NCBI GenBank assembly: GCA_022496805.1
Contig: CM040106.1
Span: 1,178,001-1,242,000, forward strand
Direction of reading: 5' to 3'
Length of the DNA: 64,000 nt
DNA from: Pohlia nutans
Lineage: Eukaryota > Streptophyta > Bryopsida > Bryales > Mniaceae
Positions 2,570-35,200 of this stretch are shown here, piece by piece. Positions within the stretch are counted from its first letter, which is position 1. Each line of letters begins with the position of its first letter. Below the pieces are notes generated by a model. It had not been told where the DNA came from. It saw nothing but the letters and a program-made list of their open reading frames with translations, and ran no database searches. A program made the translations under genes and the position numbers.

Positions 2570-2641
2570 ATTTGGCTCCCAATTCTCTGCAGAGAGTGGT
2601 ATCTTGACATCTGTCGTGATGGGTGGCGGTTTCCTTGGTTG

Positions 2642-6690: not shown

Positions 6691-6699
6691 ACCAAAAGA

Positions 6700-8165: not shown

Positions 8166-8189
8166 TCCAAAATTTTCATTTCGGACATC

Positions 8190-15393: not shown

Positions 15394-16606
15394 TTTAAGT
15401 GTTTGTAATTGCATACTCTTCCAATCAATGAAATAGTAGTGAGACTAAAAGGGCCACTACTACGGATGACAAATTCGGGTTCCATACTTCATCCAATTAG
15501 GCACTTCTTCCTACATCGGCTACTATTATTCATCGTCAATGGTCTATAACAATGGCCAAGCATAGATTTCATCTTGTTAGAAACGGGACAATATCATTGA
15601 TTCACGGTTATAGATAAATTGAGTTTGGCTTTCATGTGCCTTTAACATTTTCTACTTACTCCATTATATAGTTATAGGTACAAAATATTCTAAAGCTATA
15701 GGATCAAACATTTACTTAAGATATACAAATATCCAAATATTTCTTATTTAAAGTTATGTTGACCACAGTTGACCACAGTTGACATAGAATCTTTGCTCAA
15801 AACACCACATTTTTTGCTCACCGATCCCCGCTCTACGAGCGTAGACTATCCTTGTCCTAATGTGAATAAGAGTACATTCCCTACAATTCACAAAACTCCA
15901 CTTTTGTTGAGAGCTGCGCATCAAAGTATTACAGATTTGTATGATCTATCAAGCACAAGTACCAAAGAAAGTTGATGCTTTTGAAGAAGATACATAATGC
16001 AAGTAATATAGCAAACACCTCACGTCGATTGGACATCAAGCTAAATGCATTGAATATAATTGCGGTCGTTTTGGAAAAGTCGGAAGTAGATGTAGGAAAC
16101 AAGCTCAATGCTACAGCTGTTTAGTTAACTATCACTAGCATGATTCCACCTAAACTAGAGGTGGAAAACCAACAGTTGTTTATCGTTATTTTGACAAATT
16201 TTTCCATTTCAATTGAAAAAAATTATAAATAAAAATATCCACACGTGAATGACATGAAATACTTTCATTCAAGTGCAAGTTTCATTTTAATGAATCAATT
16301 TTCATGTACTTATGCTTTGTGAATAAAATTGCCAAAAAACAACATTTGCAGGCATTGTAGTACAAAATAAATATCAAAGTTAATAGTTCAAATTAACTAT
16401 CTTAAATAACACATCTAAATATACTTCATTTCAAAATTTGGTACCAAAATGATGTCATTGGACATTTTTACCAAATGTTTTGGATTATCTTAAGCAGCAA
16501 TGATGAATTCTAGATTTTGTACAAGAAGTCTCTTAGAAAATCTTTGATCCTCTTCAAATTTTATGTGATTTTTTTATGCTACATGAGTGTAAGAAATTAA
16601 AAACTA
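15394..16606. other. AT-rich spacer; possible zinc-knuckle scrap near 16.06 kb
   Basis: Mostly AT-rich non-coding DNA. At about 16,055-16,135 the plus strand reads NCGRFGKVGSRCRKQAQCYSC before a stop, reminiscent of a CCHC zinc knuckle, but Cys/His spacing is incomplete and there is no neighbouring gag. Nothing else is supportable. Confidence 0.3.
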
Positions 16607-16610
16607 ATAT

Positions 16611-16635
16611 TTAACTAATTATGGACAAATTCATA
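16611..16635 (+). repeat. Left terminal inverted repeat of the large element
   Basis: The sequence TTAACTAATTATGGACAAAT plus five bases (TCATA) has its reverse complement at the right end. The first 18 bases match the outermost part of the right end and the last 21 match an inner repeat there. Confidence 0.75.
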
Positions 16636-16870
16636 GTCCATAAATAAGTCGGCCCTCAGCCAACAAATGCCAAATATGCAAAGGATGCAAAAATCGGACC
16701 AGGAATATAGAAATTGGTTGAATGTTTTTTTTGTTTTTTGATTTGAATATTAAAATCAGTGAACAAATACAAGTTGCTCAAATGGAGCAGAAGAGAGTCA
16801 GCCTGCAGCCAATACCTATAGCCAAACAAATGGAGCAAGAGAGAGTCGGCCCGCAGCCGATACCTCTAGC

Positions 16871-17524
16871 CTAGCATAAAGAATAGGAAGGAATCATGTA
16901 CTTCAGGGCATGTGCAACTTCGTAGTGTATCTGTCCAAGTCTATGAGAATGCTTCATATAATCACTGACAGACTCAAACTGATGTAAGGGATAAATGAAG
17001 GGAATAATATCTGTTGCAACATTAGGAATAGTCCTGCTTGATGCGGTGAAGTCTCCCTGAAATGGCCAAGGCATGTAGCACGCAGAATCAGGAGTCCTAC
17101 GTAGAGAGAGAGGGCTAACATCAACGAGGAGGACTTGGTCAGGCTTGCATACATCCCTCGAATGGCGCTTATAATAAAGAGTGTCGAGAACCTTGTAACA
17201 CCAGGGATAATGTTCAGGACATTCAAAATATACTCTACCGAAAACAAAGGATAGCCTATCTAGAACGCCCTCCGGGAGGATAAAATTTAGCAAGAGCTTC
17301 AAGTCTCGGATTGGCATCTTAGACCATAGGCCAACATGGAATCGCTCCAACAACATTGTAAACAACTTCCTAACACCTGGCCTCTTGACAACATTTCCAT
17401 GAGTATTCCAACGATCCGGCATAACATTAGGATTGATGTAGCAAAGCAAACCCGAAACACAGAGAACAATACTATTCTTGACGGCATGAGGTTGAGCAAA
17501 ATCAGAGTCCATGAGGCAATCTCC
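16871..17524 (-). pseudogene. FCP1/NLI-type HAD phosphatase-like protein A, catalytic residues lost
   Basis: A minus-strand exon begins after a polypyrimidine-CAG acceptor at 17,525 and is open to a stop at 16,871. The pattern of an NLI-interacting-factor/FCP1 phosphatase is visible: SIVLCVSGLLCY at the motif I position, KRPGVRKLFTMLLERFHVGLWSKM (motif II region, split for reading as KRPGVRKLF and HVGLWS), FVFGRVYF, then DQVLLVDVSPL at the motif III/IV position. These enzymes remove phosphate from serine/threonine using a DxDx(T/V) nucleophile. Here the nucleophile position is Cys and the second Asp of DDSP is Val, so it would be catalytically dead. It resembles protein B at 18.1-19.0 kb in domain order. 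Upstream exons probably lie in 17.55-18.05 kb but cannot be fixed. Confidence 0.6.
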
Positions 17525-18077
17525 CTGAAAAAAAAACAGACAAATAACTCATAAATGTGGCGGTTAGAGAAACAGCAAAAGCGGACGACAGTGCCAGAGA
17601 ACGTAAGTACGGAACATATCAGCCGGCATCCGACAACATGATAGAAGCTAGAATATAGAGAACATATCGGCTGGCAGCTGACAACAATATGAACATGAGA
17701 AATCCAATTGAACAACACAGATTGAGAGAGTGAGAAAGATACAAAAATAAAAAAAGACAAAGAATTATGTGAAAACGGGCTGAAACACTCATAATATTGA
17801 ACAAAAGAAGAACCATCGTAATAATAATTCAAACAGTCATTCTTCTACAAAAATGATACAGTATTAACCAAATAAACGTCCTCAAAATGTACATTTACAT
17901 GATAACGACGTCCTCACAACTACACAGTCTACTACTGAGTGTCCAGCTACAAAAATAGATCCTCAACATTTACAATTAGTCGGCATTAAGTGGGTCCTCA
18001 AAAGTGCATTCTCTACCAAAATGTACACCTATGCTAAAGATATATAACCTAGGTGACTAGAAAAGCTAAAGAAAAGT

Positions 18078-19000
18078 CTATCGGCCGACAGCCGACAAGT
18101 AGAGCCTCATCAACTTCGAGGCTGCTAGGTGCCGAAACTTGAAAATCTCCAACGCAAAAAAAGTGGCTGGAGACAAGTCAATATATTTGGCTAGCTCCGT
18201 CAGCTGTGGGTACCAGGCATCATCTAGAAAAATGTGACGTTGCCCATAAGCTTGGTGGGATTGGAAGAACTCTGGAACAGATTGTCCAGAGCAATAACGC
18301 TTATACAAAAGGGGCTGCAGAGTTTGCATTAAGAAAGGTTTCTGACCCTTCCTCAGCTTTGCCTCCGAGTACATCGTGCAGGTGGGTGGGTGAAAAAAAT
18401 TAAAGGGATTGTTCACGGCGTTCTTGTATGGGAAGTCATCAATGAGGAGGGTGTTCTCCATAGTGGCTCCACGCCTCACCAAGCATGACGTTGCTGAAAC
18501 AAGTTCTCTAAAGACTTCAAAAAATATGGCTTGGCGAGAGCGTCCTTGTCTCTATAAGCACTCACCTTGCAAGTTCTCTGCTTAAACTGCAAGCAGTTTT
18601 CTGGAAGGCGAGGGACTATACCCCGGATGAAATCGATCCGAGGAGCAAGGTTGTGCTCCATGACACAAGACCAGAAACAAATCTCCATCCCGGCGTCTAG
18701 AACCCAACCCTAGAACTTTTCTAGACCCGGTCTAGCCTTGGAATCACCCTTCGTCATTCCCTTGTCATGAGCTAGTATTTTAGGGTTGGAGAAGTGAATG
18801 AGAGTTCCATTGACGTCGAAGAGTAGAAAATATTTCAAAGGGGCTACCTGTGGTATTAGGGTGGTCGGAACTGGCACTAACGCCAGGGTATGAGCAGTAT
18901 CACCCTTGCCATCAATATCGTCCTCTCCGGAGTGTGCAGACCGCCCATCGTCACGGTCCGGTGACTCGTACTCAGAAAACTCTGCAAGAGGATGAAACAT
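18078..19000 (-). pseudogene. FCP1/NLI-type HAD phosphatase-like protein B
   Basis: The reading starts at Met 19,000 with an acidic N-terminus, then KYFLLFDVNGTLIHF at about 18,825, which is HAD motif I with the nucleophile Asp kept and Asn at the second position, as in many plant relatives. It continues RPGLEKF, MEICFWSCVMEHN (motif II), and after a frame change near 18,478 LLIDDFPYKNAVNNP (motifs III/IV) and a helical tail ending VPEFFQSHQAYGQRH and beyond. The likely role is a Ser/Thr phosphatase. Breaks: TAG at 18,712-18,710, TGA at 18,478-18,476 and the frameshift there. It is flanked by palindromes at 18,079 and 19,097-19,249. It may once have been an active accessory gene of the element. 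Confidence 0.65.
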
Positions 19001-19433
19001 TCATACGATGAGCGACAAGATAGCAGACAAGCACTCCAGACTCCATAGAAAATGAATGAGGCATGATAGAAGTGAATAACTGACGATTATAATATGCATC
19101 GGCTGGCAGCGACATTGCAAGCCTGTCGGCTGGCAGCCAATACAAAGCCAAGTAAAGGCAGTGAGCAAAATGCTCAAAATCTTGGAGACACTAGATTGTA
19201 GGAAATCCTGATATTTTGTATTGGCTGGCAGCCGACATCAAAGACCTGTCGGCTGGCACCTAATACAAAGCAAAATAAATCTAGTGAGCACAGTGCTCAA
19301 AATTGTTTAGGCTATAGACACTAAGGAATCCTGCATATATAAGCGCGGAAGGTTCTAAATGAGGACTAAGACGATGCGAATCTACAATGCTAGTGCAGAA
19401 TCTTGGGCACTCTTTATACAATAGACTAAAACA

Positions 19434-20353
19434 CTACTCCGTTGTCTGGGACAAACCTCCAATTGGCCGCGGTCGCTTTGGAGAGGACTGAGTAGCGGGC
19501 GGCGGTGATAGCTGCTCATTCGGCTTGTCAAGATCTGCAGCGTTTTCAGGGAAGTCCGTCTCCGTGATCTCGAGCAACAACAACTGCTTCTTGGATGTAG
19601 CCTTCTGAGAATCGGCGGACAATCGGGATTTTCTTCCACCCCCCTTGGGTAGAGAAGCCGAGGATGTCGGCTGGCGGCCGACATGCGGAAGACCGGATTG
19701 CAGCAATGACTTGCTAGCATCCCCCACTCGCGTATGACCAACATCGGCGCTTCGCAATCCTGACACGATTTCCGCCAAGCGCTTTGTGATAACCTTAGAC
19801 GAAGGAGGATCACTTAAATCCACTTGCATTGAGGCACCACCAGGAATGTTGAGATCCTCTAGGCCCTCTAGCGCATGCTCACTTGGCGAAGCAGTATTCG
19901 ACATGAAAGAGGAGTACTTCGTAGACTGCGAGAAATTGATACCATGCTCAGGCATCCGAGGAAAGCCTGACGTATCCATCGGCGGCGGAGATAAAGCTGT
20001 AGGACCCCGGGCGTGCGATACCGGCTGAGAAGATACGGTGGTGGCAGGCGTGAGAATTGGGGGAGTCTGATCCACCTCGTTTGCCTTTCCTTGACCCACA
20101 TTGAGTGCGCCGTGTCGGCGGGCAGCTGATACAGGGGTCCTGCAGCTTCAGATGGAGAAATCTCCGGAGGTGCAGTATCATCTTCCGCTGGCCTAGCATC
20201 TTCTTTGATATCCATGTTATCGTCATCGACATTGTCTGACTCGCTAGAGGGAGCAATGAGGACCCTGTCCAAGTTCATCCCCTCGACTTGGTGCAACACC
20301 TTCCCTACATCATCTTTGGAACGAGCGAATTCGAGAACAGACCTGCCATTCCT
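19434..20353 (-). pseudogene. C-terminal exon: end of methyltransferase fold and Ser/Pro-rich tail
   Basis: After the acceptor GTACAG at 20,354 the exon begins RNGRSVLEFARSKDDVGKVL, completing the SAM-fold block, then an acidic stretch (ESDNVDDDNMDIKED). After a frame change near 20,100 a Ser/Pro/Lys-rich, probably disordered tail runs to a stop at 19,434 (GLSQTTE). Palindrome copies at 20,116 and 19,665 lie inside this coding exon and encode variants such as VGRQPTSS and YQLPADTA. Confidence 0.45.
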
Positions 20354-20462
20354 CTGTACATACAGGGGAAATGATTAGTAGTGTATCGGCTGGCGGCCGA
20401 TATAAGAGAATGAAAGAAGTAAGAAAATGAAGTAGGAGATGATGATAAAGTAGGTAGCGTAC

Positions 20463-21791
20463 TAGGCCTATCTCAGTAACGTTACCGCCTCCCCAGATGT
20501 TGATGACAGTGGCATCGTTTGACGAACGCAGAGAGGGCTTGAGCAGCCTCTCCAGGGTCTCATGGTCGACGCCGCAATCTCCGCTATTCCAGTCATGAGC
20601 TCCCTTTGGACACGTCTGGAACTAATCCACGGGCTTCTGGATTCCAGTGAATTTCTTGAAGGTATCGAAGCCGCCCACTATCGTCATAGGATATGACAAC
20701 GACAATGTGACAAGTGGATGAGAGTCCATATCCGACTTCTTAAACCCAGCGCGATTTGAGGGCTGATAGTACACAGTATGAACCAACCACAAAGAATCTG
20801 ATCCCGTTACATATGAGACGATATCGCGCTGCCTCGAATCGCCGATGAAGAGCATTGGACAGGAATCTCGGGGCGCTCTGGGCGCGTATGCAAGTTGCCC
20901 TCATTGTCGTCAATGAAGGCTGATTCGTCAAGTTTAAACACCCCACGCTTCGCAATATCAATGATATCACCTCTGGAGACGGTTCAAGGGTCTCTTGAGG
21001 ATGAATATGCAAAGAGCACAATCATCTTGGGGCGGTTGGTGATGGGGACAATGCATGCTTCACCCCGAATCTAGTGCATGAAGTACGTCCCTGATGGAAT
21101 CCGCGAACACGCAGTCATACCGTTGCTTCGTACTTGTGGGTGCCACGATTGGAATTGAGACCTTCAGGTGGGCCTGCAGAAGTTGATTAAAAATTGGGGG
21201 CGCAATACCATTCTTGGACTTGTCCGTTGTGGGATTCATTGGATTCTGGCGTCCCTTCAACCACTCAGACCCGTCTGTGGACTTCTTCAAGTTAGTCCAG
21301 ACATTCCTGACAATGTCATCAGTGAAATTCTTTTTGTCTGCCAAATCGTCCCAATTGCTGTCGGAATAGAGAGACCAGCCCGCATCCTTGCACGGGAGCG
21401 GGTACTTCTTAAGCTTCCACATCAGCTCGTTCTTAATCACACGGTCGAGCTTCGTGTCACGGCACCAATTAGTCAACGTTAGCCTGTCACGGGTCTTGCT
21501 GTTGCTCTTTATGCAGATTTTCTTCGCAATAATTGCCTTTCCGCACACGATGAGATCAGAGTCACGCAAACCCAAGGTTGGGACGACGTCGGTCTTCGTA
21601 ATGCCCGTGAGCGGCACACTTTTAATTAACACTGGCTCTTTACCGTCATCTCCGATCAGCTCTTGTGCCTCTCATGCATCAAAAACTTCTATCCAGTTCT
21701 TCCTAGCCTCGTTGGTCTTACAAAACACGAGAAGAAGCTTGCTTGTTACCTTCTCCCCAACAAAATGTGCCATCACCTGGGCCTTTGCAGC
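20463..21791 (-). pseudogene. Putative amino-methyltransferase (N4-cytosine/N6-adenine type) exon
   Basis: The exon follows TTCTGCAG at 21,792 and opens AAKAQVMAHFVGEKVTSKLL. The long open part (21,632-21,060) ends YDCVFADSIRD, at the position where beta-class amino-MTases have the catalytic DPPY-type motif. After frameshifts comes MLFIGDSRQRDIV and, at the exon end, ATVINIWGGGNVTEIGL. The latter, continued in the next exon by RNGRSVLEFARS, matches the SAM-binding block FxGxG...GRxVxGxE of beta/gamma-type DNA methyltransferases. The DPPY motif is not preserved, so this copy is probably inactive or the motif is misplaced by decay. It could also be another Rossmann protein. Confidence 0.4.
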
Positions 21792-22015
21792 CTGCAGAAT
21801 AGACATGGAGATGTGTTAGGATATATATCCAAGATGCGCATATGTCAGCTGGCAGCAGATACATCAATCGAATAAGCATAGCAAAGCTGATATGATAACC
21901 TATCGGCTAACAGCCGACACATGATATTACAAAGTAAAGCAAAGGAGAAGTGAGATCTTATCGGCTGGCAGCCGATAAGCAAGAAGCATGATGAATTACC
22001 TCAAATGCTGCTGAG

Positions 22016-22493
22016 GCTTGCCTCCACCTTGGTGTGGCTAAGGGCGTCCATTTCTGATCCAAGCGGCCCTACGAAGCTCGGCGCAAGAGCAGAATGTCTC
22101 CTTCGCTACCTTCACCGCGATGTTCAAATTTAGAGCCTTGGAGACTCTCACGCTCACCTTGGTATCACGAGTAAAGATCAGGATCACCTCGAACTCGAGC
22201 AACTCCTTGCGTGCTTTAGAATCAGCCGGAAACTGCTCTGCAAGCTCACGGCATGCGGTAGCAGTGTGCTGTCCACTGATTATGTACCAGTGGGTATCCG
22301 GATGTTTCCACCACGCAATCTTGGATCCATCAGGCATCGTTATCATGGCATTCTCCGCGGGCATCGAGTCTATGACAGGATCCAAGACCTTTGCTCCTGT
22401 GTCCTCTTTCTGTGGCATACGCTTCAGCGGAAGAGTATGGATCTCAGGCTTCATCCTGATTGCTCCATAGCCCTTGTAAATGGTCTTTACCTA
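22016..22493 (-). pseudogene. ParB/sulfiredoxin-like domain exon
   Basis: The exon opens after TTTGTAG and reads VKTIYKGYGAIRMKPEIHTL, then WWKHPDTHWYIISGQHTATACREL and beyond. The pattern 'hydrophobic-x-SGQHT-x-A' fits the GxHR/GQHR box of ParB-type nuclease/CTPase folds, which in DNA-modification proteins precede a methylase. It ends at a donor, ATTTGAG|GTAATT, at about 22,000; the last part reads in a different frame (DQKWTPLATPRWRQ). About 150 residues. In this family the box binds nucleotide or contributes to nuclease activity; which applies here is unknown. Confidence 0.45.
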
Positions 22494-22593
22494 CAAAGAA
22501 CATGGTTAGTTGAGTCGTATAGAAAGATGTCGGCCGGCAGCCAATACCATCAAACAACTCATACAGAAGGACGGAGACTAATAATTTACCTAG

Positions 22594-23248
22594 CTCAAGC
22601 GCGCGGTGGCGATTTTCCTGTACTTCAGCTTGTCCGGCGCAATGAAGAGCTTCTCGCACGGAATCACTCCTGGAAGCCTCCGTTTCTTATAGGGAAACGC
22701 ATTCCCAAGTCCCTCCTCCAACGCCTTGTAGATCGCGTTGACCTCATCGTCCTTAGTCTCTGTCGACAAGCGGTTTCCATGCGATAAGGCCTCATCCAGT
22801 GTGAGCCTTAGCTCCTTCCCGACAGCGGCCTTGCTCTTCTCCTTCCGCTTTGGCTTGCTTCCCTCTCCAGTTTCTTGACCCGGCTCCTGATCACCCTCTT
22901 CTCCCGTCCCAGGAGCACCTCTCTTATTCCGCGGGGTGGCCTTCTTCTTGCCTTTTCTCCTTCATATGTGCCGCCTTCTTCTCTGCCTCAATTTTGGCTT
23001 CAACGTCTTCGTTAGCACTGATCATGAGCCGCATTCAGTGATTCCCACGAATTCATGAATTCGAGAGATTCAGGGTATTCGCCCTCAAATGTCATACCCT
23101 GCTCCTTCGACGCCTGGCCACAGACATTCTCGATGCACTTCTTCCAGGGAATGGATACTGCAATGTTGTCAGGCTGACCCGTGGGGTCATTGATGGGCAT
23201 GAAGCTGATCAACAGATCGATGATCGCCGACTCCATCCCCTCCGCCAC
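22594..23248 (-). pseudogene. N-terminal exon(s) of the ParB/methyltransferase-like gene
   Basis: The block starts MAEGMESAIIDLLISFMP and continues IPWKKCIENVCG. After frame changes it becomes strongly basic (KKATPRNKRGAPG, SKPKRKEKSKAAV) and then LRLTLDEALSHGNRLS, VNAIYKALEEGL and GVIPCEKLFIAPDKLKYRK before a donor-like TAG|GTAAAT at 22,594-22,590. The Lys/Arg-rich stretch could be a nuclear localisation signal. I recognise no domain. Confidence 0.4.
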
Positions 23249-23490
23249 TGCAAGGACGCATCCAAGCCCAGGCTAGCAGCATCCCTTTAGGATGTATGTG
23301 CACACAATGTCTATTCGTTTCATCTTGTTCACCCTCCAGCAAAGACCCCACTGTTCAACTGCATTGTTTGCTTCCCACACTCCGTGCGGAACAAAGTCGT
23401 CGAGTTTTACATTGGTCGTGCCTAGCAAAGTCCCAAGCAAATTAGTGAGGAGACCCGCCTTTCCGCAAGGTCAAAACAATTATAAGTCTC

Positions 23491-24151
23491 CATCGGCTGC
23501 CAGCCGATACCAATTATCAAGTGAACTACAACACGCCGACACTACAGATAGTTCATGCTCTATCGGCTGCTGGCCGATACACAACCACTATTAGATGACA
23601 CATAATCTTGATAGAGATGCATACACTATCGACTGCCAGCCGATACACAGCCACTATTAGATGACACATGATCTTGATATAGATGCATACTCTATCGGCT
23701 GCCGGCCGACATACATAAACGATCACACGACAAACCAACTACAGTGCCTTGCATACTCTATCGCCTGCCGGCCGACATATTATCACTACACGCTGCTGGC
23801 AAAAACACAAAGAGTATCGGCTGCCGGCCGACACCAGAACACTATGGAAAGCCCGAGCTGCTCCCTGTAGACGGACTTATATCGGCTGCTCGCTGATACA
23901 TCACGATAAACCTTATGAGATCACCCAAGAGCTCAAAGATAACAGATAAGACTAAAACGCGCTCTAGTATGTATTGGTCCACTACGATGAGTACATAGTT
24001 ATGATTGTATCGACCGGCAGCTGATAGGAAACACTCCATCGGCTGCCAGCCGATACAATTAAATACTCCTAATCCACAAACAAGAATTTTCAAAATGAAG
24101 TCTATCGGCCGGCAGCCGACATCCGCTACAACTATCGGCTGCCAGCCGATA
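23491..24151. repeat. Dense, phased palindrome array with ~66-bp period
   Basis: Copies of the 19-bp palindrome start at 23,491, 23,561, 23,627, 23,693, 23,759, 23,815, 23,880, 24,008, 24,037, 24,103 and 24,133. Successive spacings are mostly 66 (70, 66, 66, 66, 56, 65, 128, 29, 66, 30). The two units at 23,581-23,640 and 23,641-23,700 are also similar between the palindromes, so part of the phasing reflects tandem duplication. The array lies at the 5' side of the minus-strand gene. Confidence 0.9.
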
Positions 24152-24579
24152 CACCGATCACATGAGCAAATGATAAGAGATTTGCGTACCTGGGGGCCGC
24201 GGCCATCTGATCTTGCGCTGAATGTATCGGCTGCTGATGGTTCTTGTGTCGGCTGCTGCACTCCCCAATATCAGCTGCTGCACTTGACCTTTCAGCGGCT
24301 GTATCAAAAACTGTCGGCTGCTGCCTAAAGTGTATCGGCCAGTGCAGGAAAGCGACCACTGGGTTGGCGGACGGAGCGCAAGTATCGGCCGCCCGCAGGT
24401 AAGAGAGGAGAAAGAGAAGGTGAGGGAGCGTGAGGACAGAGGGAGGTGAGAGGGAGGAGAGAGGCAAGAATGAAAGTGAGGGAGTGAAATGAAAAAAAAA
24501 TGAGAGGGGGAGGGAGAGTAACCCCCACCAGCGCTCCTCCAAGAAATGATGGCGCGGGCCCGCCACGTCACATCGTAGG

Positions 24580-25400
24580 CCGTCAAATCGTAGGCCGCCC
24601 AAGTGTCAAATCAATCATTCCATCCGTCCTATCGGACGCCCACCTACACAAATTCATCCACTCTACTCACTAGGTGGCAATCATCATCAACGAACTATTC
24701 CATCCCAAGAACTTCATCGAAGATCAAACTCATTCCAAGAACTTCCAAGGAATTTGAAATTTTCTTGATTTGAGCGCCAATCGCGCATGGGAATTCCCCT
24801 GGGATATCCATTGTGCTTCCATTTTCCTCATTTCAGTCTAGGATTGTTGCGCCAGCTGCGGACTTCTGTGATTTGGATCTCTCTCTCTCTGTGATATATC
24901 TTTGTGGCAATTTTGATTCTCGTGCATAGAATGAGCTTACAACTGTGATTGTAGAATGTAGAATTATGTGGTTATTCTAATTATAGCATGTGCAATGAGC
25001 TTGCAAGGTTCCTCGTTTTGTTTTCTGAGGCGTATCAGAGCATTCTGAGCAATCATCTGGTGTAGAAATTGTCATTCCCGCTATACATGTTGACGCCAGC
25101 CGATACCGTCTAGCTCTCCAGCCAATATCCTCACTCTAAACCGGTGGTCACCTAATCTTTGTCGGCCGCCGGCCGATACTAAGTTCGCCACATATAGCGT
25201 GAGGGTCGACTGGAGTCTGATTCAAAATTTCTAGGGTTTAGTGCAACCTTTTCCGCACTAGATGATCGTTGTGTTCGCTAAGTTGTAGTGTCCAACCCTA
25301 TCGGCCGGCAGCCGATACAATCATAAAGAGGTCACTAACTTTGAAGTTGGATACTTAACTAATCGACGCATTTACGAAGAACGGTAGCTCTGGGCCAGGG
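24580..25400. promoter_or_regulatory. Divergent intergenic region between minus-strand cargo genes and plus-strand transposase gene
   Basis: This gap separates oppositely transcribed units. Its left flank (24,400-24,530) is purine-rich on the plus strand, giving a CT-rich leader for the minus transcript. Half-palindromes (24,225, 24,247, 24,270, 24,309, 24,333, 24,384) lie on the left and full ones at about 25,160 and 25,299 on the right. No TATA box can be assigned with confidence. Calling it a bidirectional promoter is inference from layout. Confidence 0.4.
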
Positions 25401-25403
25401 AAA

Positions 25404-26110
25404 GTGGGTAAGGGAGTGGTAGTGACTTTAACCCACTCTGGATTCTACTATGTCGGACGTGCAGTTATCAAACGCATTGTCTCTCGCGACCCGTATCTCC
25501 TTGATGTCCGGGTTCTAGAAGTTTGTGACAATATTGAGATGATCATACCTTACCCAACGGGTGACCTTAAGTATCTCAGTCAATGTGCTGGGAGAAACAT
25601 CGTGTGGGAGGAGTGATATGTGTATCCATATTTTTATGAGCTTGATACTGCTCCCAAGCCTGTTGCGTGGCAGCCGACACCGGACGCTACTAAGGAGAAG
25701 CCCATCGACCAGTTCCTTAATCTCACGGTGAACATGGAGGTAGCTCTTTTGCACAGTGACGGATGTGACCATCATTGTGCTCGAGTAGGAGTCATTGTGG
25801 AGTGTTCTCCAAAGGGAACGTGAGAGGGATTCCATGTTCCTCATAGCTTTTTCGTCATCGTTCGACTCATGACGATGCAGAAGGATTTTTTATACTTGGC
25901 GGCATACTACGAGAATTCAGATCTTACTTCCCTTCGAGATTGCCTCGGATATAGAATCATGTGGAGCGGATACAAGGTCCGGCTGCTGGATACGGAACTA
26001 CTCCATGCGCCTCCTTTTCAGCTGACAGCCAGGAAGCGGGTCCAGATTCAGGTCTGCCATATCCAGATCGGCCCCTCTATAGAAAAAGGTATTGCGAGCG
26101 GCTGAACGAG
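25404..26110 (+). pseudogene. N-terminal Tnp1/Agenet-like region of the transposase gene
   Basis: The frame 25,404-25,616 reads GKGVVVTLTHSGFYYVGRAV...NIEMIIPYPTGDLKYLSQ...GRNIVWEE, similar in pattern to the small beta-barrel domain in plant transposon proteins that ends '...DA.G..I.W'. A TGA at 25,617-25,619 precedes YVYPYFYELDTAPKP; then a second block VNMEVALLHSDGCDHHCARVGVIVE and, past another TGA, KDFLYLAAYYE. The repetition of V-x-V-x-L plus GRAV/GVIV suggests two tandem barrel domains. Such domains bind methylated histone tails or other peptides in Agenet/Tudor relatives; here this is inference. Confidence 0.4.
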
Positions 26111-26519
26111 GATTTTTCCTTGTATGGAAGGGCAAAGATTCAAGTTTGTCTTCTAGATGAAGCGTGAGATGAGAATGTTCTTGGTGATACAGATGTTGGT
26201 GTAATGTTCGTGTCCAAGCACAAATCGCTGCAAATGGCGACAATGCGTTGGCCGTTATCTCGCACTAGACTGGAGGGTGGTCGACTTCTATGTGATATTG
26301 TAACGCTCAGCTCTGAGGCTGCTCAGATGGACATTACGGATTGTGCGGGCCTGCAAGGTATTCCTCAAAATCCCTACAAGTCTGTTTGTCGAGAAATCTT
26401 ATCCAGAGATCAGCCCCATATATCCAAGTTGAAATTCAAGACTTCGGAGGATGAGGTTCGGAAGGTTAGTTCTCAAAGGTGTTGCAAGTATAAGTGCTGT
26501 CAGACGTTTCTATGGGAGT

Positions 26520-29150
26520 CTACGAGGATACTCCATCGCAGGTTCTACTCTTGCTCATTTGAGATCAGGAGAGAGACAGCGTATGCTGTCCGAAGACAGC
26601 TTCATGTTCATGCTCCCGAGGGTAGGAAATTCATTACCCATGAAGCTGTTGACGTCTGCGAGAACGCATGGTACATTATTCACGGAGTCTCAAGATGTGC
26701 ATACCACGTCAATAAGGCTGCAAGTGTGGGAGGATGCGTCAGTGGGTCTCATGGAAATTCATGATCACTTCGTCCTCGTCCCCACACTATTCAGGCCCGA
26801 GCTACCCTGCAGAAAATCATTGACGAAAAAGCTCACCTGATGCCTAACGAGTTCAGGCTTGTTGGAAATAAGCGTGCGGATAATCTAAAGGTGGTCCCCT
26901 CCGCAATGAATAGGGACCATATGCGTGAGCAAGTGAACCATGTACGTCTCTGCCCGCTTATCTCCCTGCACATTGTCATGTTGTTCGTGTTCATCTGTCG
27001 GCTGCCAACCGACACAACTATCCCAAGCTGAGTCTTTGCTGGGTCTGTGCATTTGGCCAATATCCTTGGGCATGCGCGGCATCTTTGCAGTATGTGTTTG
27101 TGCCTTTGGACAATGGGTGTGTCGGCCGGCAGCCGATACATTTTGCAATCTCCTGCAAATTGATTGGATATCAATTCTTGTCGGCTGGTGGCCGATAGAC
27201 TTCTCTCGCCTTCATTCTAACACTCTCTCTTGCATCCAGCTATGAGGTCAATGAGAAGTGTAATCACAAACTTGTCTCAAAATCAACTATGAGTGTGCTT
27301 CGAAAGAACCATTTCAGAAATGTCGAGGTGAAGGTTGTTGGGAATAACTTCTCGAACTGCATTGAGTGTGACTTCCTTGTTGAGTGCATTGCAAAATATC
27401 CGAGAGGTTGTGATGAGTGGCATGCATTAGACAATGACAGAGAGTGCTATCTTAATTATCAACAAGCTTGCCAAAACATTTATGCTGGTTCAAGTGCTCT
27501 GTCCGTGCAAGATCCGTCAGAGTTTCTATGTATTATCCATGATAAGATGGATACGACTAAGACAGCCATTCCAAGAATGCAGAGAATCACAAAGGCCACG
27601 GCGGGTCTCGGACAGATTCCTATTTCTTGTACTGGGATGTTGACTCATGGCCACGGTGATCGTGCGTATGCGCACTATTCTACAACACTGTGGCCTGGCG
27701 ATTCCAATTTTACGATTTCGTCTATGTATTGGGTCTTGCGAGCGCTGGACTGGCCACCAGGTGAATCCGGGGATTTGTTTCCCACGCTACCACAAAGCAG
27801 CTCCTTTCAAGCTCTCTTACATGGCAAGTCCAGGTGCTTATCTTCGAGGATACTCCGTTGCAAGTTCTACTCTTGCTCATTTGAGATCAGGTGAGAGATA
27901 GAGTATGTTCATGTTCATGCTCCCGAGGGAAGGAAATTCATTACCCTTGAAGCTGTTGACGTCTGCGAGAACGCATGGTATATTATTCAAGGAGTCTCAA
28001 GATCTGCATACCACGTCTATAACGCTGCAATTGTGGGGATATGCGTTAGCGGGTCGCATGGAAATTCATGTTCACTTTATCCTTGTCCTCACACTATTCA
28101 GGCCCAAGCTACCATGCAGAAAATCATTGACGAAAATGCTGACCAGATGCCTAACGAGTTCAGGCTTGTTGGAAATAAGCGTGCGAATAATCTAACGGTT
28201 AACCCCTCCGCAATGAATAGGGACCATATGCGTGAGCAGGTGAACCAAGTACGTCTCTGCCCCCAAATCTCCCTGCTCATTGTCCTGTTGTTGGTTTTCA
28301 TCTTTCGGCTGCTAGCCGACACAACGATCCCAAGCTGAGTCTTCGCTGGGTTTGGGCACTTGGCCCCGTCCGTTGGGCATGCGCGGCATCATTGCAATAT
28401 GTGTTTGTGCCTTCAGACGATGGGTGTGTCGGCCGGCAGCCGATACATTGTGCAATCTCCTGCATATTGATACGATATCAATTCTTGTCGGCTCGCAGCC
28501 GATAGACTTTTCTTGCCTTCATTCTAACACTTTCTCTTGCATCCGACTATCAGGTCAATGAAAAGTGTAATCACAAACCTGTCTCGCAATCAACTATGAG
28601 TGTGCTTTGAAAGAACCATTTCAAAAATGTCGAGGTGAAGGTTGTTGGGAGCAACTTCTCAGAGTGCACTGAGTGTGACTTCCTTGTTGAGTGCATTGCA
28701 AAATATCCGAGAGGATGTGACGAGTGGCAGGCATTAGTCGATGACAGAGAGCGCCATCTTAATTATCAACGAGCTTGCCGAAACATTTATGCTGGTTGGA
28801 GTGCTTTGTCCCTGCAAAATCCGTCAGAGTTTCTATGTATTATCCATGATAAGATGGATACGACTAAGACAGCCATTCCAAGAATGCAGAGACTCACAAA
28901 GGCCACGGCGGGTCTTGGACTGATTCCTATTTCTTGTACCGGGATGTTGACTCATGGCCACGGTGATCGTGCGTATGCGCACTATTCTACAACACTATGG
29001 CCTGGCGATTCCAATTTTACGATTTCGTCTTTGTGTCGTGTCTTGCGTGCGCTGGAGAGGCCACTAGTTCGTGAATCCCGGGATTTGTTTCCCACGCCAC
29101 CACAAAACAGCTTCTTTCAGGCTCTCTTACATGGCAAGTCCAGGTGCTTA
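26520..29150 (+). repeat. 1.31-1.32 kb tandem duplication inside the transposase gene
   Basis: Copy 1 spans about 26,520-27,840 and copy 2 27,841-29,150. Landmarks repeat at a fixed offset: CTCC(A/G)T(C/T)GCA(G/A)GTTCTAC at 26,531 and 27,853 (offset 1,322), and ATGGCAAGTCCAGGTGCTTA at 27,821 and 29,131 (offset 1,310). Copy 2 lacks about a dozen bases near its start. Copy 1 has TGA at 26,762-26,764 where copy 2 has TGT. Only copy 2 runs on into the FLQLNNSAKDNKN core, so copy 1 would have to be skipped, or the duplication disables the gene. Confidence 0.9.
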
Positions 29151-29950
29151 TTCTCTATTCCGCCCCCTACTGGGATATGTACGAATCCTCCTCTCCCTAG
29201 ACGCCCGACGGTGCCTCTTCCTAAGATGCTCTTCTTGCAACTAAATAACTCCGCCAAGGACAACAAGAACAGATTTGTAATGGCCTTTTGCTTTTTGCAA
29301 ATTGCAAGACGCATATTCAAGGAAGTCACTGTTGGATTCTTGATTGTTGGTCATACTCATAAGGACATTGATGCACATTTTAGTTACTTGTCCAAGCTTA
29401 TCAAGAGGAAGAACACCTACGTTGTAGCAGATCTCATGAAGGCTTCCTTCTCGAGTTTGTTCGTACAAGACGGTGGCCTTCCTTCCCAAGTTTGTTCAAG
29501 AGGTAGCACATTTCAAATCATACGTTAAAGACTACCACCACGACGGTGTCAACAAGATCGTTGGATTGGGCCATATGCATCTCTTCAAATGTTTCGTCGA
29601 GGAGGACGGAGATGATAGAGGTTGGCTAGTGATGAGATACAAGAAACAAGCAACTCATTCATCTTGGCTCCCGCCAGGGCCTGCAGTCAAGATGTCGACG
29701 GCCAATTGCCACGGTAGACCTTGTTTTCCAACTGATGATCCACACCTTGTTCCATTTAAGCCAATGTGGGGAGTTACGGAGGTTAATCCGAGGAAATTGA
29801 ATTCCGAGAAGGAGCATGCCCGAGCTAGTGAATGTACAGAGAAGCAGGATTTTATCAAGAATGGAATCTCCAAGTATATTGAATTTTGGAAAACCGGTAT
29901 GGCCCGCAATAGAAGATACTCTGAGGAGATGGCCGGATGTGTTGCTTACT
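29151..29950 (+). pseudogene. Transposase core and tail (main copy)
   Basis: From the end of the duplication the frame reads KMLFLQLNNSAKDNKNRF, FLQIARRIFKEVTVGFLIVG, HTHKDIDAHFSYLSKLIKRK and NTYVVADLMKASF, then a frameshift near 29,470. The next frame gives FKSYVKDYHHDGVNKIVGLG, SSWLPPGPAVKMS, FIKNGISKYIEFWKTGMARN and stops at 29,950. This tail is the part conserved in the eroded copy at 7,680-8,165, where it lies on the other strand. Confidence 0.8.
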
Positions 29951-30560
29951 AGGAGCGAATCTACGCGGAGATCAATTCTCCGTTGCCCACAGCGCCTGCA
30001 GCACTTGTGGAGGGATTTTGGCTGGTATCAGATTGGACTCGTAATCATGCTCGTGCAACCACGTACTCCGGATCTAGTCCATCTAATCCTGAGGTCACTA
30101 CGCCCGAGGACGATGTTGACCCTTTTCCATATTGTGGTCCGCCATAGGGGAGACCAAGGTTGACTTTCAATCCATACCGAGACGTGCTGCTTGGAGACTT
30201 TGTTCTTTTTCGACCAAGCAATGACCATTACCTTCCTGTTTGGCTTGGACGGGTGCTAGAGTGTGTCGACCTTACCTCAAGCCCCAGCTACAGTAACTTT
30301 AAGGTAGAATGATGGATTCCTTTGAGATCAAAGAAGGAGGGGGAGTCGGTTGTCGCTAGGGAGTGTTGGACACGCCGTTGGCAGAAAGAGCAATGTCTCC
30401 CTCAAGTTGTGAACGCTAGCATTGTCTTGTTTTCACATAGAATGCCCTCGCATGCTAAGAAAGGACCACCTGCTACCCATATAATTCCAGAGGCGTTTGT
30501 ATGAGCTGCATTGGCGAATCTTCAGGCCGCTGGTGCTGTGATGGAACAGGACATTGAAGA
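29951..30560 (+). pseudogene. C-terminal domain of the transposase gene, BAH/Agenet-like
   Basis: Beyond TAG at 29,950 the same reading continues ERIYAEINSPLPTAP, and then after further stops GDFVLFRPSNDHYLPVWLGR, WIPLRSKKEGESVVARECW and NASIVLFSHRMPSH. The pattern 'D-V-L-F-R-P-x-D...W-L-G-R-V' resembles small beta-barrel reader modules (BAH, Agenet or Tudor-like). Stops near 30,147, 30,310 and 30,501 interrupt it. It is followed at 30,685 and 30,753 by two full palindromes with similar flanks. Confidence 0.4.
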
Positions 30561-31897
30561 TGAAGTGGACGACAAGGGGTCGGGGATTGCTGCCATGGTG
30601 TGCTTTACTATCGCCCGTCACCCCATACGTTTGTACTGGTGCCGCCTATCGGCCAACACCCCATATGTTTGTACTGGTGGCGTCTATCGGCCGGCAGCCG
30701 ATACACTTATAACCCTAAACCCGACAGGGATTATATCCATGGCGTGCTCGCCTATCGGCCGGCAGCCGATACGCTTGTAACATATCGATCCGACAGGGCG
30801 TGCAGCCACGGTGTGCTCGCCCTTGGTCGAGTGGACTCTTCAGCAGATCTACCGTGCCGGTGATATACCGGGCTTTCAAGTGCTCGTTCATTTCTGTGAT
30901 TGATCTTGGACAAGAGCGCCTGAAAGCACAAGAAACGAAGTCATTGAGATATCATCGGATACATCTCTCTACATCACGGGGCAGAACGATGTGGCTGGAG
31001 CTTCGGATACCGCATGAGTGGGGAGCAACCGCCAATCTTAGAATTAACATTGCCAGCACCTCCCGGGTTACTCGTTTGGCGTTTGATTTTGGGATACTAA
31101 TGGCTGGTTTGGGATTGCGCGTGCAAGAGTTTTGCCCTGCTCATACTAGTATTGCGAATTTTGAGGCACCAAGGTTTTTTAATTTTGTTGTTGTGAAGTA
31201 GACAGTGTATGTATTTTGTTGGCCAGCTTGGTGGCCTTTGCTCACTGGTCAGGAGCATGTACATTTGTTTTATGAGTATATAGTAATACTACTGATGTCG
31301 GCTGCCAGCCGATACCTCTAGTTTCATATAGGCACCACCTTGAACATATTTCGTTTGGCGAATGATTTTGAAATTTTAGCGGCTGGCTTTCGGTTAGGGC
31401 AGACAAAAGTTTTGCCTTGCTCATAGCAGTATTTCGAATGTTTTGGCACCAAGGTTTTAGAATTTTCATGTTATGAAGTAGTGTATGTATTTTGTTGGCC
31501 ATCTTGGTGTCCTTTGCTCACTGGTCAAGAGCATGTACATTTGTTATATCAATATTTTGTAATACTACCGATGTTGGTTGTCAGCCGATACCTCTAGCCT
31601 ATAGGTTATGTTTCGTCCTTCGACTTTGCCTTTAGTTCTCATCTATGTATCACTGTATCGACTGCCGGCCGATACTTCTTTCACAGTCTTTCAATTTGGT
31701 TGTTGCTGATCATGTTGTCCGTCATATTTGAATTGGGCTGTGCTGCTTCTGGAGTTCTACAGACATCAATTCATTCTTTGAGGGAATTTCCTTTTCCATA
31801 TGAACTTCAATTGTATCATTGGTGTGGCCTCTGTTTGCCTTCTTGTATTCCCTGAATTGGATTTTATTGGAGTGATCTCTTTCCTTTTTTTTAGTGT

Positions 31898-31934
31898 TTT
31901 AGGGTCTAGGGGTTTAGGGTTTAGGGTTTAGGGT
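31898..31934 (+). repeat. Short interstitial telomere-type array (TTTAGGG)
   Basis: Five tandem units: TTTAGGG, TCTAGGGG, then TTTAGGG three times. This is the Arabidopsis-type telomere unit, supporting a plant or green-algal genome. It lies about 290 bp inside the right terminus of the large element. A degenerate CCCTAAA-like run also occurs at 57,355-57,395. Confidence 0.9.
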
Positions 31935-32179
31935 ATAGTTAATTTAGTAATAATTGTGTCGTAGGCCGGCCGACTCTTTTCTTTGACTTGTTTGCCTTAT
32001 TTTTTTCTACATTAATTGTTTCAATGGGCTTGGTTTCTATGGAAAATGTGTTGGCAGGCCACCGATACTATTCAGTGAATGTGTTCATAATTTCTTCATA
32101 TTCAAGTGTTTTCCAATTTTTGCTTCCTCATTTTGGGGTTTATCTACAATTTTGGGACATATTTCACCGTCATAAATTG

Positions 32180-32223
32180 TATGAATTTGTCCATAATTAG
32201 CACAATTGTCCATAATTAGTTAA
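32180..32223 (-). repeat. Right terminal inverted repeat of the large element, internally duplicated
   Basis: Two copies of TTGTCCATAATTAG lie here (32,187-32,200 and 32,206-32,219). In reverse complement the outer copy matches the outer 18 bases of the left terminus, and the inner copy matches its inner 21 bases. The left terminus has one copy, so the right end contains a roughly 19-bp duplication. Confidence 0.75.
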
Positions 32224-32227
32224 ATAT

Positions 32228-35200
32228 AAGGTTAAAACTACAACCCGTCAATTTTTCATATAATGTTTTGAAGAGAGAAGCATTCAGAGTTGTCATAGGA
32301 GGTAATTTCAAAGTTCAAAGGGCTTTTTGGAGTTCCCATATCAAACGTTGCCCTTCAAAATGGAATAATTTTATCCAAGACAACTATAGTTTGGGTTATA
32401 TCCACCAATTAGTGGATGTGGATCAAATGGTGGATACGAAATTGAAATTTTTAAGACACAGGCTTGTTTGGATTGGAAGGATGTTGCTAGCAAATGGGTT
32501 GCATTAGAGAGTCATAGAACAATACTCAACTAACATTTGGGTGGACTCACTAAGTTTCCAATTTGGGGTGATATTAACCTCGTGATGCATTGGAAAAATC
32601 ATTTTCAAAATGATAGATGCAAAAAAGTTGAATGGGCTTCCGAGATAGACGAAGGGTGGATGCCATATAATGTCTTTTCATTGCACCTATCGAAGAAATG
32701 GAAGAAGATATACTAGGACAATGTCAACATACCGTTCACATTTTGTGCATTTCATAACTATGTTTGAGGATTTCTATGTGTCATGAGAGTCGATCTCCTA
32801 TATATGTAGTTTTTGAAGAAATGATAGGCCTTCGCCACATTATGCCATTTGGACATGAATGCAATCAATAGAACCTTTCTTTTGGATCAACTTTCTAAGA
32901 AATTTTTAAATTTCAAGCATTGGAGTCAACCATTGACATGGGGTGTCGACCTCAACTACCAAGATTTGTATCATGATTTCTCTATACACATTGAACCTCT
33001 TTATTAAATGACACAAGATTATAAAGTCGAAATGCAAGCACATGCAATTGAGAATGAGGTGTTTTGTCGCAACTTTGGAGGATACTGGAGAGTCAAAATC
33101 AAGCGGTTTTTTCAGGCTCCATAGAAAGAAGTTAAAAAGCAAGATGATAACACTTGGTATGAGACAAACAGTGTGGTGTATAGAGAAGAATACTCAAAGT
33201 CTTACCATACATTGATTGGTAGAGCCCTAGTCCTTTCAAAGTTGGAAGAGGCGGCTAGACTTCGTGCTACAATGGCATAAGACATGTATGTGGATGACGA
33301 GAATTCCTATGAAGTTGTTGCTAGTGCATTTGATAAGAGGATCACTGTTGTCATTACCAATTGGCAACGACATATGCAATCCAATACTACATGAATCAAT
33401 ATCCACGGCATTTATATACAATGTCAACGCTGAAGATCTTGTTGTAGGTTGCGTGAACAAGTTCATGGAAGTTTTTTTGGCAAAGGAGGAGGATTTGATC
33501 ACTACTTACAAGAGGAAACACAAGATAGACTCGGATGACTATTAGGAACCTTTTTAAGACAATCAAGAAACAAAACTCGCAATTGATTATGGGATTCAAG
33601 CAGGCGGTAGAATTACTCGTTTTAGTCAATTAGTATGATGTAGCAGTCTGTCGTCTGCTATAACCATCCGCCGTTTGATTGGTTTATCTATCGTGTGATC
33701 TTATAAGAATCGCAAACACAAAAACCTACTAGAATCAAAAAATGCCATATAGAATTGGATGTAGGTAATTAAGGCAGCCAAAAAATTCAAGGTAAGGATC
33801 CAAAGTTGTATCCAAAAAATTCTACAATGAAGACTGTACCATATTTGACAAAGTCAAAAGAAAATGCAACGACACTAGGTTGTGATCCATATTACTTAGA
33901 AAACAATCGTAATTTTGATTTTCTTATTGCATTTTTCTCTATTCATTGTACATTTGTAATTTGTACTTCATAATCAATGTACATATATATCATATGATAT
34001 CATTTACTATATTAAAAGAATTTATTGTTATCCTTCTATCTTTTGATATTGTATTCATTGAGTTGATGCAATTGTGTTGAATAAAGTTTGAAGAGTACTT
34101 TGTATAATTGGATTCAAGGAAGTTACAGTGAACCAATAATAATAACCTTTGTGTTCTTTGACCAAAAGTTATAAATGGATCATTTTATTTAAGTTTTTTT
34201 TATCTTCCTAGAGCCCTCTATGGACATTCTCTGGACTTAAATCTGAAGTTTCAAAAGAATGTCTTCAAAAACAGATATACAATGTTAGAAGGTAGTATTT
34301 GAAAAACAGGCTAAAATCTAATTCAATTGTAAATTTCATGACTTTAAGCATTTTCAACTTGATTGGTTTTTACCCCAAAATTACCAATCAACTATATAAT
34401 GCTTTAATTTTGGTCAAACACTCAAGATTTCGAGTGTTTTAGCATTATTGGAGTTGGTGTTTGCATTAAATGTTTAAACTAAGTAGGATAAATGTTTTGA
34501 CCATTGGAATTAGAAAATAGACTTCATTCGAAGATCTTTTACCGTCAAGAATCTTGAAATTTCAAGGTCCAAAATAAAAAGGGCTTTTTAAGAATGCTTC
34601 GATCATTTGTCTCTATTCTTTTTTACAATTTTATTTTTTTACTACTTGTAAATATAAATTTAATTTACCTTGAATATTCTTTTTGACATTAAACTCAACA
34701 AGAATATAATAATTTTGAGAAGTTTTCTTATATATAAGATAAAAATTGAAAATATTTTAAATATCTTCCAATTTTGTTGAAACATTTTTCAAACCTTCAT
34801 AATAATAGAACATTGATGATTATTTATCAACAATTATAAATTGTTGAAAGTGATATATCAAATCTCACAATGTAATATTTCAATTTGTGCTACTTTTTAA
34901 ATTTTAGAGGCATATGAATTTGCCATAAATTCACGTTCACTTTGAAGAATCTGCTGTAAATTTTTCTTTAATATACTCTTATTTTTTCACTTTAAATTTT
35001 TAAAAGGTTAGGAAGATCTTAATGGTCTATCATTATGACATATGTAAGAGCTTGGTTGTCTTAACCTCTAAAGGATGTTGGGATACTGTAGTCATCAATG
35101 TTATGAAGGTTTGAAAAATGATTCTAAGTATTTTCTAATTTTATCATATTAACAAGATAAATATATAATATTGTAAAAATAACTCTTATTACCCTTGATT

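What the first reader, a model, noticed from the sequence alone, without database searches (positions are those of the whole stretch)
16611..32223. A ~15.6 kb DNA transposon combining a DUF7869 transposase with ParB/methyltransferase and HAD-phosphatase cargo
Inverted ends (TTAACTAATTATGGACAAAT and its complement), a palindrome family confined between them, and a divergent gene arrangement argue that these genes travel together. A large transposon carrying a DNA-modification-like gene and two FCP1-type phosphatase-like genes beside its transposase is not a class I know. Cargo could modify chromatin or transcription at the element (self-protection or silencing escape). The termini and palindromes are seen directly; the gene families are recognised from motifs; the joint function is inference.
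Basis: partly seen in the sequence, partly recalled or inferred. Interest (0 to 1): 0.88.

Follow-up and report, generated by a model that had tools for sequence, protein, structure and literature searches.

The report
Four-gene plant-type transposon with palindrome sites
A large jumping-gene family carries, beside the gene that probably moves it, a bacterial-type DNA-binding gene and two odd phosphatase-like genes that travel with it, plus dozens of copies of one short palindrome that may be where its own proteins bind.

Summary
The element is real. True borders: 16602-32232, flanked by the 4-bp duplication TAAA. From the host genome I fetched 11 other inverted pairs of this terminus; with the window, 8 of 12 have exact 4-bp duplications, 3 differ by one base, 1 has none (cross-element control 3 of 132). 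Three of the 11 carry the same gene set in the same order: DUF7869 transposase and, divergently, a ParB-like gene and two NIF/FCP1-type HAD genes. The ParB-like exon occurs at 115 loci; 21 of 48 testable ones lie within 15 kb of an exact, inward-pointing terminus (random points 0.5%). The palindrome occurs 713 times (reversed control 0); 42 of the 50 sites listed lie near these elements. The window copy is decayed. ParB similarity is remote; no methyltransferase signal was found; HAD2 lacks catalytic aspartates in four of four copies. A ParB-plus-methyltransferase gene in a giant Sola1 transposon is published for Ectocarpus (PMC12477816), so this cargo is a known kind; the HAD pair and palindrome array appear new. 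Mechanism (inferred): self-recognition through the palindromes, to mark or de-silence the element.

The parts
16598..16601 (.). left target-site duplication TAAA
   Evidence: equals the right copy; 8 of 12 elements have exact 4-bp duplications, cross-element control 3 of 132
16602..16635 (+). left terminal inverted repeat (AACTAATATTTAACTAATTATGGACAAATTCATA)
   Evidence: inverted repeat; terminus shared by 11 other fetched pairs
16871..17526 (-). HAD2: NIF/FCP1-type phosphatase-like exon, motif I reads CVSGLL (no catalytic Asp); 5' border read by eye
   Evidence: Pfam NIF 1.1e-4, 22.4 bits, cut-off 21.8; in 3 other elements at 45-84% identity
18102..19000 (-). HAD1: NIF/FCP1-type gene, motif I DVNGTL, frameshifted and with a stop in this copy
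   Evidence: Pfam NIF 3.9e-5, 23.8 bits on the read-through; 3 other full elements
19437..20362 (-). probable last, low-complexity exon of the ParB-like gene; holds 2 palindromes
   Evidence: open frame; its start aligns in other copies; borders tentative
   Evidence: mismatches 0.34/0.25/0.60 by codon position, L041 vs L066; no methyltransferase match
22001..22490 (-). ParB-like exon (WYIISGQHTATACRELAEQ)
   Evidence: 13.6 bits to an 11-member phage ParB-like profile, best of 200 shuffles 3.0; 115 genomic loci
22591..23470 (-). first exon(s) of the ParB-like gene, frameshifted and with stops here
23471..25350 (.). divergent intergenic region with a dense palindrome cluster and half-sites near 24200-24400
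25359..30560 (+). DUF7869 transposase-like gene, with in-frame stops, a frameshift near 29480 and an internal 1.3-kb tandem duplication (26519-27840 / 27841-29151)
   Evidence: DUF7869 5.3e-35; repeats; stops; 3 other full copies
16647..32067 (.). span of the 19-bp palindrome family TRTCGGCTGSCAGCCGAYA; 36 sites at 13 of 14 arm matches, 34 of them outside putative exons
   Evidence: 713 exact sites genome-wide, reversed control 0
32180..32232 (-). right terminal inverted repeat with an inner repeated copy
32233..32236 (.). right target-site duplication TAAA
6245..8173 (-). outside the element: relic of a second, divergent element (last third of the transposase gene plus the outlying palindromes)
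   Evidence: 65% nucleotide identity over 893 columns, E 5e-40; mismatches by codon position 0.26/0.24/0.49

Best explanation
It is a decayed copy of a multi-copy, four-gene DNA transposon of a plant-type genome. SHOWN: shared termini, 4-bp target duplications, and a gene set (DUF7869 protein; divergent ParB-like gene; HAD1; HAD2) that co-occurs in other copies; the DUF7869 and ParB-like genes are conserved at protein level. INFERRED: the DUF7869 protein is the transposase that cuts and pastes the element. INFERRED: the dispersed palindromes, kept in introns and intergenic DNA, are binding sites for an element-encoded protein, most likely the ParB-like one, which coats the element so that it is recognised as self and kept open to transcription (or so that the transposase is gathered on it), much as Arabidopsis VANC proteins do through dense motifs in non-coding parts of VANDAL elements. 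The HAD pair, one member lacking catalytic aspartates, probably acts as a protein module (a phosphatase for the transcription machinery plus a pseudo-phosphatase partner) rather than as host-derived ballast.
For: Mobility: 8 of 12 elements (11 fetched pairs plus the window) have exact 4-bp duplications, 3 differ by one base, 1 fails; control 3 of 132. Gene set: all five query segments in the same order in 3 of 11 pairs; 1 (C2) has transposase and HAD pieces but no ParB; 7 short ones (6-8 kb) keep only end fragments of HAD2 and transposase. Genome scale: 115 ParB-like loci, the window's included; of 48 on contigs covered by the terminus listing, 21 have an exact terminus within 15 kb; the 25 termini involved all point inwards and 12 lie 5.3-6.0 kb downstream; random points on ten of the contigs 0.5%. 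Selection: mismatches by codon position 0.22/0.14/0.56 for ParB and 0.34/0.25/0.60 for the post-ParB exon, L041 vs L066. Palindromes: 713 exact, reversed control 0; 42 of the first 50 sites within 15 kb of a listed terminus or ParB exon, a zone of 0.46% of that span; at least 3 sites in each of the 30 best ParB loci; 34 of 36 outside putative exons; two intron palindromes at 18 of 19 in the distant copy L066 where spacers hardly align (by eye). VANC precedent: PMC5735166 (passages).
Against: No binding, methylation or expression data. Among close copies the palindrome arms are not significantly more conserved than the rest of the intron (0.900 vs 0.863 pairwise identity, p 0.63; my intron start was set too early there). 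ParB similarity is below Pfam's threshold (DUF6551 E 0.084 for the core, 0.22 for the exon; in 3 of 14 relatives, best 0.14, while two unrelated families score as well or better), falls when the nearest profile members are dropped (hhalign 48%, then 19%), has no PDB match of note, and the single-sequence fold is poor with no Foldseek match at E 0.001. Against the decayed window copy the ParB third-position excess is slight (0.127/0.106/0.156, 33 copies). HAD selection evidence is weak. C2 lacks ParB, so not every long copy has the full set. HAD and transposase genome counts did not complete. Nothing shows that the ParB-like protein rather than the transposase binds the palindrome.
Confidence: 0.5

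Rival explanations
1. The element is the same, but the palindromes are transposase-binding sites, spread through the element as an extended form of subterminal repeats; ParB and HAD genes do something unrelated.
For: Palindromes persist in the 7 short copies without a detectable ParB gene (13-21 sites of at least 13/14 each) and in the relic beside transposase remains.
Against: They are not concentrated at the ends; they sit in introns of both halves and are dense in the middle. Short copies mobilised in trans could equally need self-marking.
Confidence: 0.3
2. ParB-like and HAD genes are captured host genes (Pack-type cargo), carried passively without function for the element.
For: HAD/NIF genes are ordinary host genes in plants (recalled, not searched here); the window copy is full of stops and frameshifts; HAD selection evidence is weak.
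Against: Same set and order in 3 other elements, and a strong third-position excess in the ParB-like gene between distant copies: passive cargo would not be kept that way.
Confidence: 0.1
3. ParB-like protein plus a true N6/N4 methyltransferase methylates the element's own DNA, as proposed for the Ectocarpus Sola1 accessory protein.
For: Published precedent with the same opposite-strand layout (PMC12477816, passages). By eye, the relatives keep a YDC...DV...L...DCPK stretch and a GGGN.TEI stretch near the C-terminus that could be remnants of methyltransferase motifs.
Against: No methyltransferase match in Pfam, PHROGs, NCBIfam or PDB, single or aligned; no [DNS]PP[YFW] on the coding strand of the gene; the candidate motif reads DCPK.
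Confidence: 0.1

Closest known systems
Sola1-1_Ec32 of Ectocarpus (PMC12477816, passages)
   Same: Giant DNA transposon (21.5 kb) with a ParB-like accessory gene on the strand opposite the transposase; proposed to bind and modify its own DNA.
   Different: There a methyltransferase domain is predicted; here none is detectable. Two HAD genes, a palindrome array and a DUF7869 transposase are not mentioned in the passages seen. Homology of the two transposases was not testable here.
VANDAL / VANC anti-silencing system (PMC5735166 passages; PMC10398659 abstract)
   Same: Element-encoded protein and a short motif repeated densely in introns, intergenic and terminal non-coding parts of one TE family, rare elsewhere.
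   Different: The VANC21 motif is a 9-mer arrayed in one orientation; here a 19-bp palindrome. Relationship of the proteins was not tested; binding is not shown here.
TET/JBP-bearing KDZ, IS3EU, EnSpm and other fungal transposons (PMC12730594, abstract and passages)
   Same: DNA transposons that carry an epigenetic modifier as cargo.
   Different: Cargo is a dioxygenase; Zisupton TSD is 8 bp and the IS3EU families 6 bp with TAYGG ends, versus 4 bp and AACYNATATTTAACT here.
Phage ParB-like nuclease-domain proteins (Pfam DUF6551)
   Same: The GQHT/R box and about 50 residues around it align with the exon (hhalign 74% for the exon, 83% for its family; controls at most 0.4% of 60 and 3.2% of 100).
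   Different: Below Pfam's gathering score; the support drops without the nearest members; the plant-type protein is much longer.

Membership tests
TIR DNA transposon | terminal inverted repeats and fixed-length target duplications at several insertions | tested here: met
   8 of 12 exact 4-bp, 3 of 12 one mismatch, 1 of 12 none, control 3 of 132
TIR DNA transposon | encodes a transposase | tested here: inconclusive
   DUF7869 5.3e-35 lies in the element and is conserved; Pfam calls it a domain of unknown function; catalytic role not shown
Sola (Sola1) superfamily | 4-bp target duplication (length recalled, from no call) | tested here: met
   Ginger and others share this length (recalled)
Sola (Sola1) superfamily | transposase homologous to Sola1 transposase | not testable with these tools
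KDZ / Zisupton | 8-bp target duplication | tested here: not met
   4 bp; 8 bp for Zisupton per PMC12730594
IS3EU | 6-bp target duplication, TAYGG..CCRTA ends | tested here: not met
   definition from PMC12730594
ParB-like (DUF6551) domain | profile match above the curated cut-off | tested here: inconclusive
   12.8 bits vs 26.8; own 11-member profile 13.6 bits vs best of 200 shuffles 3.0; 14.5 vs 3.8 without two members, 10.9 vs 4.3 without four
N6/N4 DNA methyltransferase | profile match or [DNS]PP[YFW] motif | tested here: not met
NIF/FCP1 HAD phosphatase | Pfam NIF above cut-off | tested here: met
   HAD2 22.4 and HAD1 23.8 bits vs 21.8
NIF/FCP1 HAD phosphatase | catalytic DxD motif I (motif recalled) | tested here: not met
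   HAD2 no Asp in 4 of 4 copies; HAD1 DxN in 4 of 5 and NxN in 1
VANC-type anti-silencing element | family-specific motif dense in non-coding parts | tested here: met
VANC-type anti-silencing element | element protein binds the motif and removes DNA methylation | not testable with these tools
   needs ChIP/EMSA and bisulfite data

The most novel reading that the evidence does not exclude
A eukaryotic transposon that works like a ParB-parS system: the element's ParB-like protein loads at dozens of element-specific palindromes kept in its introns and intergenic DNA, spreads over the element, and with a phosphatase/pseudo-phosphatase pair acting on the transcription machinery keeps its copies, autonomous and short, open or marked as self. 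The methyltransferase part of the algal versions would have decayed into a non-catalytic body while the recognition role was kept.
Probability: 0.2. Interest if true: 0.88.

Novelty: new variant of a known kind. Interest (0 to 1): 0.66.

Why it matters
It extends the algal idea of ParB-bearing giant transposons to a plant-type genome with many copies, several with open ParB frames, adds a phosphatase/pseudo-phosphatase pair, and supplies what the passages read of the published case do not mention: a concrete candidate DNA target, one 19-bp palindrome nearly restricted to the family. That makes the question 'does a transposon-encoded ParB-like protein recognise its own element?' directly testable by a binding assay.

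Tried and rejected
Rejected: that the two halves are two unrelated elements (palindromes in both halves; termini and gene order shared by other copies). Rejected: chance termini. Not used as evidence: the single-sequence folds of the ParB exon (pLDDT 47) and of the post-ParB exon (pLDDT 36); only the ParB model was put through Foldseek (0 matches at E 0.001 in PDB and in the viral library). No tRNA (bacterial code) or Rfam hit in the window. Viral contigs held no relative of the transposase core; plasmids had no near DNA match. The MT836101.1 tblastn hit has E 5 and served only to name a family to test; choosing that family because of this hit is a selection bias, partly met by dropping its nearest members. 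Palindrome-versus-spacer conservation among close copies gave no significant difference. In one search my HAD1_L066 frame was off by one, so that row is not used. One search was a script that failed on a file name; one search repeated it.

Could not be done: genome counts for HAD2, the transposase and PF25273; protein database search (switched off).

Literature: one search found no paper with 'DUF7869'. Searches for ParB, methyltransferase or HAD cargo in DNA transposons: (in 31 only 15 of 81 papers were listed); of the listed papers only PMC12477816 bore on the question. PMC8226300 (passages) does not hold 'ParB'; PMC4455052 (passages) gave no duplication length for Sola. These searches cover open-licence PMC papers only. 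Of PMC12477816's refs 50 and 51 I saw only the tail of entry 50 and entry 51 in its reference list.


Full report
What is there. The window carries a terminus-bounded element at 16602-32232. Mean GC is 0.47 inside against 0.37 to the left and 0.41 to the right, though other parts of the window are as GC-rich. Comparison with other copies shows that the real ends lie 9 nt further out (AACYNATATTTAACT...), and the window copy is then flanked by the direct repeat TAAA.

Genes. On the + strand a transposase-like gene (about 25359-30560) has a strong DUF7869 match, 5.3e-35, in-frame stops, a frameshift and a 1.3-kb internal tandem duplication. On the - strand, from the middle outwards, lie a long ParB-like gene, HAD1 and HAD2; both HADs reach Pfam's NIF cut-off. 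Introns of the ParB-like gene were read by eye, so exon borders are approximate. This copy is decayed.

Mobility and linkage. The host genome answered one terminus search: 740 + 787 hits with up to 3 mismatches against 70 + 65 for the reversed control. From the 100 exact places listed I took the 11 adjacent inward pairs of about 6-19 kb; wider pairs (22.7, 28 and 55 kb) were not fetched. Of these 11, three (C12 13.6 kb, C12 14.2 kb, C4 19 kb) carry all five query segments in the window's order; one (C2, 19 kb) has transposase and HAD pieces without ParB; seven short ones keep only end fragments of HAD2 and of the transposase. Counting the window, 8 of 12 have exact 4-bp duplications, 3 have one mismatch, 1 has none; pairing left and right flanks of different elements gives 3 of 132. 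The seven short copies are probably non-autonomous deletion derivatives (inference).

Genome scale. The ParB-like exon matched 132 places, a lower bound since 150 of 517 candidates were scored; I count 115 loci after merging pieces by hand, the window's included. On contigs covered by the terminus listing, 21 of 48 loci have an exact terminus within 15 kb; the 25 termini involved all point inwards, and 12 of them lie 5.3-6.0 kb downstream; random points on ten of these contigs give 0.5%. Since only zero-mismatch termini were listed, 21 of 48 is probably a lower bound; the other 27 were not examined for inexact termini.

Selection. Between the distant copies L041 and L066 the ParB exon differs 0.22/0.14/0.56 by codon position and the post-ParB exon 0.34/0.25/0.60. 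Against the decayed window copy the excess is slight, 0.127/0.106/0.156 over 33 copies for ParB and 0.155/0.097/0.194 over 31 for the post-ParB exon. The transposase core differs 0.09/0.09/0.24 between the window and three copies. HAD2 shows only a mild third-position excess in the closer pairs (0.12/0.08/0.18, 0.12/0.07/0.14 and 0.05/0.04/0.09) and none against the damaged C12a copy; HAD1 (its C-terminal part, three copies) 0.28/0.26/0.39. So the transposase and ParB-like genes are clearly maintained; for the HADs the case is weaker.

What the ParB-like gene is. The only Pfam suggestion for the window's exon is the sub-threshold DUF6551 (E 0.084 for the core, 0.22 for the exon). The phage protein that I used as entry to this family matches DUF6551, and of the 30 phage records listed for it 12 are named ParB-like, 13 hypothetical, 1 DNA binding protein and 4 have no annotation. 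Among 14 relatives of the exon, 3 match DUF6551 (best 0.14), but 3 also match each of two unrelated families as well or better (0.013, 0.095). A profile from 11 phage members scores the exon 13.6 bits; the best of 200 shuffles gets 3.0, and the exon ranks first among 95 window ORFs; without the two nearest members it scores 14.5 (best shuffle 3.8), without four 10.9 (4.3). Profile-profile probability is 74% for the exon (60 shuffles at most 0.4%), falling to 48% and 19% as members are dropped, and 83% for the aligned family (73% without the two nearest) against at most 3.2% for 100 column shuffles. I read this as a genuine but remote ParB-like domain. No methyltransferase was found; the motif expected for N6/N4 enzymes (recalled) is absent from the coding strand of the gene, and where a remnant might be, the relatives read DCPK. 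That reading of a remnant is by eye.

What the HADs are. HAD2's motif I reads CVSGLL, CATGFL, CVTGLF and, in another frame of the damaged C12a copy, CVTGLL: no aspartate in four of four. HAD1 keeps the first aspartate in 4 of 5 copies but has Asn in place of the second. HAD2 is therefore best described as a pseudo-phosphatase.

The palindromes. 36 of 37 window sites at 13 of 14 arm matches lie inside; 34 of 36 lie outside putative exons that make up 62% of the element, P about 9e-13 on exon borders I drew partly by eye. Genome-wide there are 713 exact sites and none for the reversed pattern; of the first 50 sites listed 42 lie within 15 kb of a listed terminus or ParB exon, a zone of 0.46% of that span, and 8 do not. 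Each of the 30 best ParB loci holds at least 3 sites, usually at fixed places in the same introns, and the distant copy L066 keeps two of the three intron palindromes at 18 of 19 while the spacers hardly align (by eye). Among close copies, however, arms are not significantly more conserved than the remaining intron. The relic at 6245-8173 shows the same pairing of motif and transposase in an older, 65%-identical relative; four sites there is not in itself beyond chance for 48 kb, their clustering is what counts.

How it most likely works. Shown: it is a mobile family with a recurrent gene set and a family-specific palindrome. Inferred: the DUF7869 protein is the transposase; the ParB-like protein recognises the palindromes. 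The nearest tested system is VANC, whose motif is dense in introns, intergenic and terminal non-coding parts of its own VANDAL family and rare in other TEs (PMC5735166, passages). The rival that the transposase binds the palindromes is not excluded.

What is known. [quoted passage not shown] The present family resembles it in size class, layout and ParB-like gene, and its 4-bp duplication fits Sola (length recalled). I could not compare the transposases, so I do not file it as Sola. The HAD pair, the lack of a detectable methyltransferase and the palindrome array are differences from the passages I read.

Verdict.

Noticed in passing
window 3232-3756 (-), next to gypsy pol pieces at 207-2641 (-): A C-5 cytosine DNA methylase fragment (Pfam PF00145, 3.4e-8) lies just upstream of a gypsy-type reverse transcriptase and integrase on the same strand, with ECQGLS where a PCQ motif is usual (recalled); it may be part of the retroelement.
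   Followed up: partly
window 6245-8173 (-): Relic of a second, older element of the same family: last third of the transposase and degenerate palindromes.
   Followed up: yes
host contigs C22 (19.5 Mb) and C23 (16.7 Mb): C22, 2.8% of the genome, holds 51 of 115 ParB-like loci and C23 another 11. They could be sex or otherwise element-rich chromosomes (guess); giant KDZ and EnSpm transposons are enriched on Ectocarpus sex chromosomes (PMC12477816, passage).
   Followed up: partly
window 42316-45965 (+): A CACTA element with Transposase_21 (1.6e-69), DUF4218 and DUF4216.
   Followed up: no
window 49599-50956 (-) and 61079-62437 (+): Two stretches of open frames that look similar to each other by eye (...HAYxxRxLxLxPG..ACNC...FVFK...FxSLMDxGW...), with no Pfam match.
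   Followed up: no
L021 (C6 short copy): Palindromes in this short copy form arrays with a period of about 148 bp (1843, 1991, 2139; 2791, 2939, 3087), as if the sites multiply by tandem duplication.
   Followed up: no
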